In this document: positions 36,154 to 39,324 of the stretch, piece by piece
Layout of the letters: each line of letters begins with the position of its first letter
Position numbering within the stretch: position 1 is the stretch's first letter
DNA from: Neomegalonema perideroedes DSM 15528
GTDB taxonomy: Bacteria > Pseudomonadota > Alphaproteobacteria > Rhodobacterales > Rhodobacteraceae
Length of the DNA stretch: 64,000 nucleotides
NCBI RefSeq assembly: GCF_000374145.1
Contig: NZ_KB893653.1
Coordinates: 71,495 to 135,494, forward strand
Direction: 5' to 3'
The notes under the pieces: generated by a model
Database searches by the model: none
Seen by the model: only the letters and a program-made list of their open reading frames with translations
Told to the model about the DNA's origin: nothing
Made by a program: the position numbers and the translations under genes

Positions 36154-36516
36154 TCAATCGAGATGCTTGACCAGTCTTCCCAGATCCTTCAGCTCGCGAT
36201 GCAGCTGCTTGCCCAGCGCCTTATCGAGCTTTCCGAGATCCTTCAGCTCCCGCTTGACCTGCTTGCCGAGCGCCTTGTCGAGGCTTCTCGCGAATTTGGG
36301 GCTGAGCGGCGGACCATAGGAGACCACGGTGGTCGCGCCGTTCGGAGTCCCGGCGGCCGGGGCGCTCCAGCGGGGATTGGCGCTCGACCAGCTCGGCGCC
36401 CCCCAGCCGGAGGCGGCCGCAGGAGCGGAGGCCGCTCCGAAGGCTTGGGGCTGGGCCGAAAGGGCCGCGCGCGGCGCAGCCGCTCCGCCGAAGGCGGTCG
36501 TATTGAAAGCGTTCAT
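36154..36516 (-). CDS. Low-complexity protein with tandem amphipathic repeats (cluster gene 4)
   Basis: 120 residues, no recognised family, no signal peptide. The N-terminal half is Ala/Pro/Ser-rich and contains WGAPSWSSANPRW, a motif shared with the next gene (IGAPSWSNSNAKW). The C-terminal ~45 residues are two near-identical amphipathic units, LDKALGKQVKRELKDLGK and LDKALGKQLHRELKDLGR, then LVKHLD, predicting basic helices that could bind membranes, nucleic acid or a partner. A GAGG ribosome binding site lies eight bases before the ATG. It follows the tyrosine-rich gene by 28 bp and is probably in its operon. Confidence 0.65.
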   Translation of the reverse strand: MNAFNTTAFGGAAAPRAALSAQPQAFGAASAPAAASGWGAPSWSSANPRWSAPAAGTPNGATTVVSYGPPLSPKFARSLDKALGKQVKRELKDLGKLDKALGKQLHRELKDLGRLVKHLD

Positions 36517-36544
36517 GTCTTCATCCTCTGCCGGAAGCCGGACC

Positions 36545-37075
36545 TTAGCCGTAGGTCGCGCTGAAACGGGGCCCGCCGTAGCTCACGCCCGCGGAGGGCG
36601 AGGCGTAGCCGTAGTTCACGCCCACGGCGGGAGAGGAATAGCCGTAGCTCACGTTCGCCGCCGGCGCGGCGTAGCTGTAGTTCCCGCCCCAGCCGCGATC
36701 GCCGAAGAGGAAGTCCAGCTTCGAGCCCAGAAGCCCGCGATGGCCCTGCGAGACGGTCACGGTCTGGGGCTGCTGCTCGAGGCTCGCGTAATATTGCCGC
36801 CATTTGGCGTTGGAGTTGGACCAGCTCGGCGCGCCGATCCAGCCGGTCGAGGCCCCCGGCGCGGCGGTGGACTGGAAGCCGCCCGCAGCGCCGCCCGAAG
36901 CGCCGCCGTTGACGATGTTGCGCCAGTTGCTGCTGGATCCGGTCATCCAGGAGGGGCCGTAAGCGCCGTTCCAGGCCGCGCCGCCTCCGGCGGAGCCCTG
37001 AGGCTGGGCGTAGGTGGTCACCACTTGCGGGCGGCGATGGGCCCCTAAGAGGGCCGCTTTCAATCCAAGGGTCAT
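36545..37075 (-). CDS. Gly/Ser/Tyr-rich protein with C-terminal 11-residue repeats (cluster gene 3)
   Basis: 176 residues, unrecognised. The sequence is rich in Gly, Ser, Asn, Tyr and Trp. It contains YGPSWMTGSSSNW and IGAPSWSNSNAKW, related to a motif in the following gene. The last ~45 residues are about four degenerate 11-residue units built as SYGYSSPAVGV and NYGYASPSAGV. No signal peptide is visible. The ATG at 37075 is preferred because AGGAG lies eight bases upstream; an earlier in-frame ATG (37096-37094) would place that ribosome binding site inside the coding region. An AT-rich region (37125-37205) upstream probably holds the promoter. Confidence 0.65.
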   Translation of the reverse strand: MTLGLKAALLGAHRRPQVVTTYAQPQGSAGGGAAWNGAYGPSWMTGSSSNWRNIVNGGASGGAAGGFQSTAAPGASTGWIGAPSWSNSNAKWRQYYASLEQQPQTVTVSQGHRGLLGSKLDFLFGDRGWGGNYSYAAPAANVSYGYSSPAVGVNYGYASPSAGVSYGGPRFSATYG

Positions 37076-37396
37076 CTGTTCTGCTCCTGAGAACATCTGT
37101 ACGCCTCCCGACGAGGCGCATACTGATCTAATATGGAGCATATTACATGAGATTACAGGAATTTTTGTATTTTATTAGGATTGTTGGATCAATTTGATAC
37201 AATTCGGCGCAGACCCAGATCCCCGAAAGGTTGAAGAAGACGAGGCGGCCGAAACCGAGCCCCGCCGCTCGGGCAGGATCGGCCTCAGGCCCCGATCTCC
37301 TTTCGATTCTCGCGCGTTAGGGCCTTTTCCCGACGCGGGGCCGCAGCGGCGCCGCCGGAGAGCGCTCCGATCCGGCCCCGCCGCCCGCGCCGCGCC
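37076..37396. other. Intergenic region with AT-rich promoter-like segment
   Basis: 321 bases between cluster genes 2 and 3. From about 37125 to 37205 the sequence is strongly AT-rich, in contrast to its surroundings, and includes TGATACAA (37195-37202), whose complement TTGTATCA also occurs upstream of cluster gene 1 (38813-38820). The rest is GC-rich without a gene. Confidence 0.5.
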
Positions 37397-38179
37397 TCAG
37401 GTTTGCAGCTGATGAGGATTCGGCGTCGCCTCCAGAGGCGTTCCGGCTTCGCGGCGCGCGCGCGCCATGGCCTCCTCCCGCGCGGAGCCGCCGTTTCGCC
37501 GCCCTTCGCCGCGCGCCTCTCCGCCTCGGCCCTCCTCTTCGGCGCCCTGAGACGCCCGCGACCCGCCCCCCGCGCCGAGAAGCCTGAGAATCTTCTCAAG
37601 GACGGCCTCTTTGATTCGCCGGACCGGGCTGAAGAGCGCCTCCAGCAGACGCCGGGCGGGAGACGGCTCCTCCTCCTGCGGCTCCTCAGGCTCGGACGGA
37701 GGCTGCGCCTGTCGGGCGTAGGTCTCCGCGGCCCAGCGCCGGGGATCCGGCGCGGCGACCGCCGCCGCCTGAGCCCCGCCCGCCGCCTGAGGCCCCGAGC
37801 CTTCGCCGGAGGCTTCGGCGCGCATCTCCCGAAGGCGATGCGCCAGAGAGCCCGGCTTGGGCTCGGCCTCCTCCCTGCGCGCCGCCGCCTCGGGAGGGGG
37901 CTCTTCGAGCGGGCCTTCGATCTCCGGATCCGGCTCGATCTCCCGCAGCGGACGCCGGACGTAGACCGGTTCAGATCCGCCCTCTTGCTCGGGAGGCGGG
38001 CCTTTCGGCGCCCTCCAATCGTCAGGGACGCGCGATTCTTCGCGCCGCGCGCCCTCCTCCCACCCTGAAGCAGGACGCGCGGCGGCGCCATGCGCCGAAG
38101 GGAAGTCTTGAGCGAAGCGAATCCTGAGATTCACATGCGCGTCGCGGCCATCGGAGGCCGCCGCCGGAGGGAGACGCAT
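37397..38179 (-). CDS. Pro/Glu/Arg-rich protein of unknown function (cluster gene 2)
   Basis: 260 residues, unrecognised. Mostly Pro/Glu/Arg/Ala-rich and likely disordered, with two helix-forming segments: SLAHRLREMRAEASGEGSG (about residue 112), which resembles repeats in the upstream gene, and RRLLEALFSPVRRIKEAVL (about 180), an amphipathic or hydrophobic helix. It begins six bases after the upstream gene's stop without a clear ribosome binding site, so the exact start is uncertain; coupling to the upstream gene is likely. The opposite strand is also open here but codes for an implausibly Arg-rich product. Confidence 0.5.
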   Translation of the reverse strand: MRLPPAAASDGRDAHVNLRIRFAQDFPSAHGAAARPASGWEEGARREESRVPDDWRAPKGPPPEQEGGSEPVYVRRPLREIEPDPEIEGPLEEPPPEAAARREEAEPKPGSLAHRLREMRAEASGEGSGPQAAGGAQAAAVAAPDPRRWAAETYARQAQPPSEPEEPQEEEPSPARRLLEALFSPVRRIKEAVLEKILRLLGAGGGSRASQGAEEEGRGGEARGEGRRNGGSAREEAMARARREAGTPLEATPNPHQLQT

Positions 38180-38185
38180 GCGCGC

Positions 38186-38758
38186 TCAGGAGCCGGAGCT
38201 CTGCGAGGAGCCGCCCGCATGGGCCTCCGCGCGCCAAGCGGCGATCTTCTCCTTGAGGCTCTGGCCCTCCGCGGAGCCGGACCCGCCCTCCGGGGATTCG
38301 GAGCTCCGGTCTTCGGAGGCCGCGCGAGAGGATTCCGCAGGAGCCTCCTCGGAGGATTCTTCGGAATCCGAGGCGGCTTCCGCATTCCCGGAGCCTCCCG
38401 CGTAAGCCTCTTCGCGCAAAGCGGCGAGCCGCGCGGATTGGCTGCTGCGCTCGGAGCCTTCGGCTTCGGATCCGCCCTCGGAATCTGAGGCGGAATCCTG
38501 CGCCTCCTCCCCTTCGCCGGAGGATTCGTCCGCGGGCGCGCCGCTCCGCGCGTCGATCCAAGGCGCTCCGCCCGTTTGCGCCGCCGGAACCCAGACCATG
38601 GCCGGACGCGCCTGAGCGAAGCCGCCCGCGCCCCATTGGGCCGCCGCGCGCGGGTCCATGACCGGGAAGGCGCCTCCGAAGGCGCCGCGCGCCGGAACGC
38701 AGACTTGCGCCCCTTGGAGACCGAGGATTCTTGCTCCGCCAGATAAAGATCCGAACAT
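38186..38758 (-). CDS. Ser/Glu-rich acidic low-complexity protein (cluster gene 1)
   Basis: 190 residues, unrecognised. The first ~75 are Gly/Ala-rich with GGAPWIDARSG, reminiscent of the GAPSW motif of cluster genes 3 and 4. The rest is very acidic Ser/Glu/Asp-rich sequence punctuated by two related units, LAALREEAYAGGSG and KIAAWRAEAHAGGSS. No signal peptide or membrane helix. AGGAG seven bases before the ATG supports the start, and the leader GTCTCAGGAGC is nearly the same as that of cluster gene 3. It heads a probable two-gene unit with cluster gene 2, just downstream of rplT. Confidence 0.6.
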   Translation of the reverse strand: MFGSLSGGARILGLQGAQVCVPARGAFGGAFPVMDPRAAAQWGAGGFAQARPAMVWVPAAQTGGAPWIDARSGAPADESSGEGEEAQDSASDSEGGSEAEGSERSSQSARLAALREEAYAGGSGNAEAASDSEESSEEAPAESSRAASEDRSSESPEGGSGSAEGQSLKEKIAAWRAEAHAGGSSQSSGS

Positions 38759-38899
38759 TTGGCCGCTCCTGAGACAAATGAAACCAAACCCAATGGGGTT
38801 AGGCGCTATGTTGTATCATTTTGGAGCGATTGTCCTCAAGAATGGCGAATTCATTGAAGAGATCGCCATCCGCGTGCGGATCTTGCGTCAAAAAAAAGA

Positions 38900-38970: not shown

Positions 38971-39324
38971 TCAGACGGCGGCGCGGGCCTTGGCGACCAC
39001 CGCGGCGAAGGCGGCGGGCTGATTCACGGCGAGATCGGCCAGAACCTTGCGGTCCACGGCGATTCCGGCCTTGGCCAGACCATGGATGAGCTGAGAATAT
39101 TTCAGGCCATGCTCGCGGGCGCCCGCGTTGATGCGCTGAATCCAAAGCGCGCGGAAATTGCGCTTCTTATTCTTGCGGTCGCGGTAGTGATATTGCAGCG
39201 CCTTGTCGACGGCTTGGGCGGCGGCGCGGAAGATGTTCTTCCGACGGCCGTAATAGCCCTTGGCGGCGGCGCGGATGCGGTTGTGGCGGGCGCGAGCGAC
39301 GACGCCGCGTTTGACTCGGGACAT
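38971..39324 (-). CDS. rplT: 50S ribosomal protein L20
   Basis: 117 residues, the family length. L20 is an early 23S rRNA-binding assembly protein. Seen: [37 protein letters not shown] and [18 protein letters not shown]. It follows rpmI by 19 bp on the minus strand and ends at a strong terminator, so transcription into the low-complexity cluster downstream needs its own promoter. Confidence 0.97.

What the first reader, a model, noticed from the sequence alone, without database searches (positions are those of the whole stretch)
36154..38758. Unrecognised four-gene low-complexity cluster inserted between rplT and pheS
rpmI-rplT and pheS-pheT are neighbours in many alphaproteobacteria (established). 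Here four minus-strand genes lie between them. Seen directly: cluster genes 3 and 4 share GAPSW-S-x-N-x-[KR]W, gene 1 has a related GGAPW, genes 1 and 2 share an RAEAxxGGS-like helix unit, gene 3 ends in 11-residue Tyr/Ser/Gly repeats and gene 4 in two basic amphipathic repeats. No signal peptides. Two probable bicistronic units, each with an AT-rich leader. This looks like a coherent, undescribed system of disordered or structural proteins, possibly self-assembling or granule/envelope-associated; that function is inference only.
Basis: partly seen in the sequence, partly recalled or inferred. Interest (0 to 1): 0.75.

Follow-up and report, generated by a model that had tools for sequence, protein, structure and literature searches.

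The report
Genus-only disordered protein gene cluster
A filamentous, plastic-storing sewage bacterium and a sister species share four real but undescribed genes for proteins that look mostly unstructured, one of them carrying a helix built like those that coat storage droplets; what the proteins actually do has not been tested.

Summary
The observation largely holds. The window is Neomegalonema (Meganema) perideroedes Gr1T. Four minus-strand genes lie between rplT and pheS, and the same four, in order, in a second Neomegalonema species (STC_130). Divergence is that of real genes: dN/dS 0.31-0.55, gaps in multiples of three in genes 1, 3 and 4. Gene 2 is weaker (5 of 10 gaps in frame).

Each profile gives strong matches in only these 2 of 101 genomes; gene 4 adds weak ones in four. 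In 385 genomes drawn from the class, gene 3 matches its own genome strongly and four weakly. No Pfam, NCBIfam, PHROG or PADLOC family matches significantly.

The two bicistronic units have moderately similar leaders, and a leader model found no third copy in the genome. Genes 1-2 are acidic, genes 3-4 basic. Genes 3 and 4 share a GAPSW motif. Gene 4 ends in an 18-residue amphipathic-helix repeat, two copies here, four in the sister. The claimed kinship of gene 1 with the others fails or is marginal.

Best reading: disordered proteins coating an internal surface, likely a storage inclusion. This is inference (0.33). A canonical phasin exists elsewhere in the genome, and codon use does not suggest abundance. 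Novelty: a genus-restricted variant of a known kind.

The parts
38186..38758 (-). gene 1: 190 aa, acidic (pI 4.3), Ser/Glu/Gly-rich, two copies of a LAALREEAYAGGS-type unit
   Evidence: ortholog L031:4347-4979
38387..38437 (-). gene 1 helix unit, copy 1
   Evidence: E 2.2e-7; the model was built from it; best match outside gene 1 in the two genomes has E 0.0406
38204..38254 (-). gene 1 helix unit, copy 2
   Evidence: E 2.9e-9; the model was built from it
37397..38179 (-). gene 2: 260 aa, acidic (pI 5.3), Pro/Glu-rich, four predicted helices of 12 or more residues and a conserved C-terminus ending GTPLEATPNPHQLQT; starts 6 nt after the gene 1 stop
   Evidence: ortholog L031:4993-5841
37574..37660 (-). 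gene 2 amphipathic helix, residues 174-202
   Evidence: pLDDT about 74-79; hydrophobic moment 0 of 2000 shuffles in the window, 238 of 2000 for the sister stretch
36545..37075 (-). gene 3: 176 aa from the preferred start M8 (183 aa from ATG 37096), basic (pI 9.7), Gly/Ser/Trp/Tyr-rich, predicted unstructured
   Evidence: ortholog L031:6002-6556
36797..36844 (-). gene 3 GAPSW motif GWIGAPSWSNSNAKWR
   Evidence: identical in L031; shared with gene 4
36548..36682 (-). gene 3 C-terminal VxYG repeats
36154..36516 (-). gene 4: 120 aa, basic (pI 10.4), Ala/Ser/Pro-rich head with GAPSW motif and an 18-residue-repeat amphipathic tail
   Evidence: ortholog L031:6672-7175 (167 aa)
36364..36411 (-). gene 4 GAPSW motif SGWGAPSWSSANPRWS
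   Evidence: 0 of 2000 shuffles; 21 of 2000 for the sister copy
36157..36282 (-). gene 4 amphipathic tail, 18-residue repeats
   Evidence: moment peak at 99 degrees, 0 of 2000 shuffles; two copies here, four in L031 (108-nt gap)
38759..38845 (-). leader of unit 1: GCTCCA at 38822-38827, predicted hairpin about 38783-38804, AGGAG at 38766-38770
37076..37162 (-). leader of unit 2: GCTCCA at 37134-37139, predicted hairpin 37100-37120, AGGAG at 37084-37088
38971..39324 (-). rplT, upstream flank
   Evidence: 94% identical in L031
34966..36042 (-). pheS, downstream flank
   Evidence: 96% identical in L031

Best explanation
The cluster encodes four small, mostly disordered cytoplasmic proteins made from two co-regulated bicistronic units. 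They act together as a coat or scaffold on an internal hydrophobic surface, most likely the storage inclusions (polyhydroxyalkanoate, less likely polyphosphate) for which this genus is known. Proposed working: the repeat tail of gene 4, and perhaps helix 174-202 of gene 2, is unfolded in solution and folds into a straight amphipathic helix lying flat on the surface. The 18-residue period is exactly five helical turns, so the leucine stripe stays in line however many repeats there are. The GAPSW motif of gene 4 and the Trp/Tyr-rich gene 3 associate with each other. The acidic gene 1 and gene 2 proteins attach by charge and by short helix units. SHOWN: the genes, their conservation in both species held, genus restriction among the genomes searched, similar leaders, opposite charge of the two units, shared motif of genes 3 and 4, and the geometry of the helix repeat. 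INFERRED: disorder (low AlphaFold confidence and composition), co-regulation, any physical interaction, the surface, and the function.
For: Gene 4 tail: on the wheel of the 18-mer the five Leu fall in a 0-120 degree arc and H, K, K, K, K, R in 180-280; the moment peaks at 99-100 degrees in both species, 0 of 2000 shuffles. Repeat number differs by whole 18-residue steps between species, the kind of length change a surface-lying helix tolerates. Mean hydrophobicity is low (0.11); Plin4's repetitive helix is described as weakly hydrophobic (PMC8064757, search listing only) and as coating neutral lipid (PMC5889406, abstract only). Phasin PhaF is reported largely disordered without its ligands, with an amphipathic PHA-binding helix (PMC3574117, abstract only); phasins are called phylogenetically heterogeneous (PMC5658603, title and passages). 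The organism stains positive for lipid and polyphosphate inclusions and has a relatively high capacity for PHA storage (PMC4511698, parts 1-2 of 4). Charges: pI 4.3 and 5.3 against 9.7 and 10.4. A leader model finds only the two leaders it was built from (150 of 484 candidates scored). No signal or membrane stretch.
Against: Nothing localises any of the proteins. The genome already has a canonical phasin (Phasin_2) elsewhere (G000:C11:46145-46426), so the phasin post is not vacant. No phasin family matches. Codon use is not that of abundant coat proteins: gene 3 is average (0.591, 176 of 500 simulations as high), genes 1 and 2 below expectation (500 of 500 simulations as high or higher), gene 4 455 of 500. 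The amphipathic character of gene 2's helix is not kept in the sister stretch (238 of 2000 shuffles), and none of the other short helices tested in genes 1, 2 and 3 is amphipathic beyond shuffles. A charge-hydropathy index does not place genes 3 and 4 in the disordered range. PHA storage is far more widespread than these genes (recalled), so it does not explain genus restriction.
Confidence: 0.33

Rival explanations
1. Scaffold of the filament: the proteins assemble at septa or under the envelope and hold the disc-shaped cells of the Neomegalonema filament together.
For: The genus is filamentous with irregular disc-shaped cells (PMC4511698), and strong matches are restricted to the genus among the genomes searched. 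Basic amphipathic helices can also bind anionic membranes (recalled). Gene 3 is rich in Trp/Tyr/Gly/Ser.
Against: No signal peptide or membrane stretch in any of the four (crude test); the neighbours read by eye in 33.0-42.5 kb (pheT, pheS, rplT, rpmI, a carboxylase subunit, a COX15-like protein) are not division or envelope genes (names recognised, not searched); it is not known whether STC_130, a metagenome assembly, grows as filaments.
Confidence: 0.2
2. Young lineage-specific genes with mild or dispensable function: disordered orphan proteins that arose in a permissive GC-rich interval and are kept weakly.
For: Genus restriction, dN/dS two to seven times that of the three neighbours, below-expected codon adaptation of genes 1 and 2, and an interval that is variable in relatives.
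Against: dN/dS still well below 1, gene 3 80% identical with a 16-residue motif unchanged, in-frame indels in genes 1, 3 and 4, and leader elements kept in both units.
Confidence: 0.17
3. Nucleic-acid or regulatory condensate: basic genes 3 and 4 bind RNA or DNA and the acidic pair tunes it.
For: High pI of genes 3 and 4 and opposite charge of the pairs; Tyr/Gly/Ser-rich tail in gene 3.
Against: The gene 4 tail has a leucine stripe and interspersed acidic residues, unlike Lys/Pro/Ala-rich DNA-binding tails (recalled); the only nucleic-acid-related PHROG matches are at chance level (E 1.3 and 2.1).
Confidence: 0.12
4. Desiccation or stress protectants (hydrophilin or LEA-like disordered proteins).
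For: Gly-rich, low-hydropathy composition; gene 2 of the window has GRAVY -1.03 and 10.4% Gly.
Against: The hydrophilin limits (recalled: Gly above 6%, GRAVY below -1) are met by only 1 of 8 proteins; gene 3 is rich in Trp and Tyr.
Confidence: 0.06
5. Remnant of a mobile element, phage or plasmid cargo.
For: Variable interval between rplT and pheS in relatives.
Against: No match for gene 3 in viral contigs, plasmids or phages and none for gene 2 in plasmids; PHROG matches only at E 0.49 or worse; same place and order in both species.
Confidence: 0.03

Closest known systems
Phasins (PhaP/PhaF; Pfam PF05597, PF09361, PF09602, PF09650; the last two accessions recalled)
   Same: Small proteins with amphipathic helices proposed to lie on the PHA surface, disordered or loosely folded when free (PMC3574117 abstract, PMC5658603 passages).
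   Different: No sequence match to any phasin family; an exact 18-residue repeat; four genes in two units; a canonical phasin is present elsewhere.
Perilipins, especially Plin4
   Same: A long repetitive, weakly hydrophobic amphipathic helix that coats lipid droplets, with helix length important for targeting (PMC5889406 abstract; PMC8064757 search listing).
   Different: Eukaryotic; 11-mer repeats (term counted in the listing, otherwise recalled) rather than 18; no homology claimed.
Disordered condensate scaffolds with short helix motifs (CsoS2, EPYC1; recalled, no call)
   Same: Repeated short helix motifs separated by disordered linkers, as in gene 1.
   Different: No enzyme partner identified; the motif was found only in gene 1 in both genomes below E 0.04; no sequence comparison with CsoS2 or EPYC1 was made.
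Taxonomically restricted (orphan) bacterial genes
   Same: Genus-only distribution among the genomes searched and biased composition.
   Different: Four genes together under two similar leaders, conserved in order in two species.

Membership tests
Phasin | match to a phasin family model | tested here: not met
   no phasin family up to E 10 for genes 1, 2 and 4 of the window or for gene 3 of the window and all four of L031
Phasin | amphipathic alpha-helix | tested here: met
   gene 4 tail, moment 0.57 and 0.53, 0 of 2000 shuffles in each species
Phasin | largely disordered when free | tested here: inconclusive
   AlphaFold mean pLDDT 37 (gene 3) and 58.7 (gene 2) with two-row alignments, which may only reflect thin alignments; genes 1 and 4 not modelled; charge-hydropathy index below zero for gene 2 in both species and gene 1 in one, above zero for genes 3 and 4
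Phasin | located on PHA granules | not testable with these tools
   needs imaging or granule proteomics
Perilipin-type repeat helix | 11-residue repeats | tested here: not met
   repeat of gene 4 is 18 residues
Hydrophilin | Gly above 6% and GRAVY below -1 (limits recalled) | tested here: not met
   1 of 8 proteins passes both
Phage, plasmid or defence gene | match in phage, plasmid or defence collections | tested here: not met
   gene 3 against phages, viral contigs and plasmids, gene 2 against plasmids, all four against PHROGs and PADLOC; genes 1 and 4 were not searched in the record collections
Secreted or membrane protein | N-terminal signal or transmembrane stretch | tested here: not met
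   best 19-residue mean hydropathy 0.95; crude test, no dedicated predictor

The most novel reading that the evidence does not exclude
A genus-specific, multi-component protein compartment: two disordered basic proteins (one aromatic-rich, one with a ruler-like 18-residue surface helix) and two disordered acidic proteins with short helix motifs, made from twin transcription units, assemble into a charge-matched condensate or coat that builds a Neomegalonema-only structure not present in other Alphaproteobacteria.
Probability: 0.13. Interest if true: 0.75.

Novelty: new variant of a known kind. Interest (0 to 1): 0.42.

Why it matters
If the proteins coat storage inclusions, they would be a lineage-invented addition to phasins in a genus often detected in PHA-producing enrichment reactors (PMC4511698), and the gene 4 repeat would be a natural length series for studying how amphipathic helices choose a surface. 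If they build a filament or condensate structure, they would show how a bacterial genus acquires a new cell-biological part from disordered proteins without recognisable homologues. Either way the locus is small enough to test in a few experiments.

Tried and rejected
Rejected: non-coding or antisense reading. The GC3-based caller preferred antisense frames over genes 1 and 2, but substitutions peak at the sense third position in both. Rejected: high-expression coat inferred from AT-rich leaders, because codon adaptation does not support it. Rejected: gene 1 as carrier of the GAPSW motif, and a firm gene 1-gene 2 helix family. Weak hits outside the genus: own-genome L042 does not correspond to a gene 4-like ORF; L038 is a Lys/Gly repeat protein with an apparent signal peptide, judged unrelated by eye; the other gene 4 hits (G074, G082, G029; E 0.003-0.008) and the four class hits for gene 3 (E 0.001-0.009) cover short stretches and were not followed. 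Sub-threshold Pfam matches of the sister's gene 4 (best E 0.029, suprabasin repeat, and 0.032, DUF2997; both below their cut-offs) were set aside as composition. Structure searches were not run because both models have too little confidence. PDB sequence comparison, made for genes 3 and 4 only, gave chance-level hits (best E 1.8 and 0.51). The hairpin z-scores were computed on segments chosen because they fold; on 70-nt segments they are only -1.4, -1.4, 0.0 and -0.8. Leader similarity is moderate: 22, 10, 1 and 10 of 1000 shuffles for the four species pairings, and 98, 156 and 16 of 1000 for three of them without the last 22 nt.

Mistakes: and the second protein, used gene 3 coordinates one base off and so the wrong frame. 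The Pfam, NCBIfam and genome searches were repeated in frame. The single genome-contig scan was not, so that collection was never searched with a correct gene 3 query; L031 came from that scan and its genes were then read in the right frame. One search printed negative gaps for loci on the minus strand; one search repeated the measurement with orientation handled and gives the same 14, 3 and 10 of 27. The gene list ranked contains duplicates and doubtful ORFs, so I give the simulations and not the rank.
Full report
WHAT THE WINDOW IS. The genome holding the window has 3,409,949 bases, exactly the size published for Meganema (now Neomegalonema) perideroedes Gr1T (PMC4511698; parts 1 and 2 of 4 read); the number of contigs differs (17 here, 22 in the paper). 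It is a filamentous alphaproteobacterium of activated sludge, positive for lipid and polyphosphate inclusions and noted for PHA storage. The listings of three literature searches show no title or abstract start about this locus; of the papers listed I read only PMC4511698, in part.

ARE THE GENES REAL? Four minus-strand ORFs fill the 2,928 nt between rplT and pheS. A second species, Neomegalonema sp. STC_130 (L031), has the same four in the same order. Protein identity is 41, 59, 80 and 64% for genes 1 to 4, against 96% for pheS, 94% for rplT and 92% for pheT. dN/dS is 0.55, 0.48, 0.36 and 0.31 against 0.08, 0.15 and 0.155. These proteins evolve fast but under constraint. The ratios are rough: dS is 1.17, 0.75, 0.33 and 0.84 for genes 1 to 4 but 0.21-0.29 for the neighbours, so part of the alignment of genes 1, 2 and 4 is probably wrong or the region has diverged faster for another reason. 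In a frame-blind nucleotide alignment every gap in genes 1, 3 and 4 is a multiple of three (9 of 9, 1 of 1, 3 of 3), and mismatches are commonest at codon position 3 in all four genes. Gene 2 is weaker: 5 of 10 gaps are in frame; its C-terminus is strongly conserved. Antisense frames are open and GC-rich, and a GC3 caller picked them over genes 1 and 2, but the substitution pattern speaks for the sense strand.

START OF GENE 3. Two ATGs are possible. The 27 nt from the first ATG are identical in both species, including all synonymous sites, and contain TCTCAGGAGC, the same ribosome-binding stretch that precedes gene 1. I therefore place the start at the second ATG (37075).

HOW FAR IT SPREADS. 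Two-row profiles of genes 3, 2 and 1 each matched 2 of 101 genomes at E <= 0.01, both Neomegalonema. Gene 4 matched 6 of 101; the four outside the genus are weak (E 0.0003 to 0.008), and the best of them is a Lys/Gly repeat protein that looks unrelated. Over 385 genomes drawn from the class, gene 3 matched its own genome strongly and four others at E 0.001 to 0.009; G001 was not listed in that draw. Only the best 8 first-look candidates per genome were scored in the class search and at most 24 to 36 in the others, so weak relatives could have been missed. No family in Pfam, NCBIfam, PHROGs or PADLOC matched above its cut-off or below E 0.02 (gene 3 was in the wrong frame, right in 43, 44, 68 and 82). 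Gene 3 had no match in viral contigs, plasmids or phages, and gene 2 none in plasmids.

THE INSERTION SPOT. Of 31 genomes searched with pheS, 29 matched, among them the two Neomegalonema. In the 27 others rplT lies 9-317 nt upstream on the same strand in 14 and 0.9-1.0 kb upstream in 3, and was not found in the roughly 1.5 kb held in 10. In the 13 loci of the last two groups I read the upstream ORFs of 60 aa or more in which GC3 is highest: by eye they look like ordinary enzymes, transporters and regulators, or no clear gene, and none resembles this cluster. The interval is variable; the insertion as such is ordinary.

TWO UNITS WITH ONE KIND OF LEADER. Each unit is preceded by an AT-rich leader with GCTCCA (in the sister's gene 1 leader this reads GTCTCA), then a hairpin at a GCGC stretch, then TCTCAGGAGC. 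A sequence model of the four leaders finds only the two leaders of this genome that it was built from (150 of 484 first-look candidates scored), so there is no sign of a wider regulon. The resemblance between the leaders of units 1 and 2 is moderate: 22, 10, 1 and 10 of 1000 shuffles reach it in the four species pairings, weaker without the last 22 nt (98, 156 and 16 of 1000 in three pairings). Hairpins are predicted at the same place in all four leaders, with unrelated stem sequence in the two gene 1 leaders, but their stability over shuffles is unremarkable on 70-nt segments. No sigma-70-like promoter was found by the simple scan. Co-regulation is therefore inference.

PROTEIN ANATOMY. Unit 1 is acidic (pI 4.3, 5.3) and unit 2 basic (9.7, 10.4). 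Hydrophobic residues (ILVFM) make up 10-20% against 27% on average in 39 other window proteins. G+S content is raised in genes 1 and 3 (0.31-0.35 against 0.14) and less so, 0.16-0.23, in genes 2 and 4. The simple charge-hydropathy index places gene 2 in the disordered range in both species, gene 1 in one of two, and genes 3 and 4 in neither; this counts against calling all four disordered by that measure. AlphaFold on two-row alignments gives gene 3 no structure (mean pLDDT 37) and gene 2 a set of separate helices (58.7); genes 1 and 4 were not modelled. Gene 1 carries the unit LAALREEAYAGGS twice in each species, in varied form; outside gene 1 the best match in either genome has E 0.0406. The GAPSW motif links genes 3 and 4.

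THE GENE 4 HELIX. The repeat LDKALGKQLHRELKDLGK is 18 residues, exactly five turns at 3.6 residues per turn. On the wheel its five leucines span 0-120 degrees (one Glu and one Asp fall in the same arc) and H, K, K, K, K, R span 180-280. The hydrophobic moment peaks at 99-100 degrees and no shuffle of 2000 equals it in either species. Copy number is two here and four in the sister. This is the design of a helix that lies along a surface and can be lengthened without losing register. No coiled-coil predictor was run.

FUNCTION. Putting a surface helix, an aromatic-rich partner sharing its motif, and an acidic pair together in a PHA- and polyphosphate-storing organism, a coat or scaffold on storage inclusions is my first choice (0.33). 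A filament or septum scaffold (0.2), weakly functional orphan genes (0.17) and a nucleic-acid condensate (0.12) follow. Against the first choice stand the canonical phasin elsewhere in the genome, the lack of any phasin family match, and codon use that does not suggest abundance. No call tests localisation, expression or binding.

VERDICT. It is a conserved cluster, undescribed in what I could search, found only in this genus among the genomes searched, and not noise. Part of the claimed internal kinship fails, and the function is open but testable.

Corrected against the calls: five leucines, not six, in the repeat; the weak matches of gene 4; the dS caveat; the scoring caps; gene 3 in NCBIfam and the gap measurement, both newly run. 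None of these required a change of odds.

Noticed in passing
L058-L086 (pheS loci of relatives): The rplT-pheS interval is variable among the relatives searched: unrelated ORFs (by eye a methyltransferase, transporters, a regulator, a hydrolase) sit just upstream of pheS in different genomes, and in 10 of 27 rplT was not found in the 1.5 kb held.
   Followed up: partly
window 37403-38068 + and 38178-38405 +: Long GC-rich antisense frames lie over genes 2 and 1; a GC3-based caller prefers them although substitutions favour the sense genes.
   Followed up: yes
L038:704-1312 -: A 202-aa protein with an apparent signal peptide and Lys/Gly-rich repeats in another alphaproteobacterium (G043), superficially like the gene 4 tail but by eye unrelated.
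   Followed up: no
G000:C11:46145-46426: The single Phasin_2 match of the genome, present also in G001 (C2:87355-87636).
   Followed up: no
window 38756-38780: The gene 1 ribosome-binding site is flanked by CATTTG and CAAATG, so the start codon could pair in a weak hairpin with the AGGAG in its loop; kept in both species, but its folding energy is not beyond shuffles.
   Followed up: partly
window 36154-38758 against L031: Synonymous divergence of genes 1, 2 and 4 (dS 1.17, 0.75, 0.84) is far above that of gene 3 (0.33) and of pheS, pheT and rplT (0.21-0.29); misalignment, recombination or faster mutation were not told apart.
   Followed up: no
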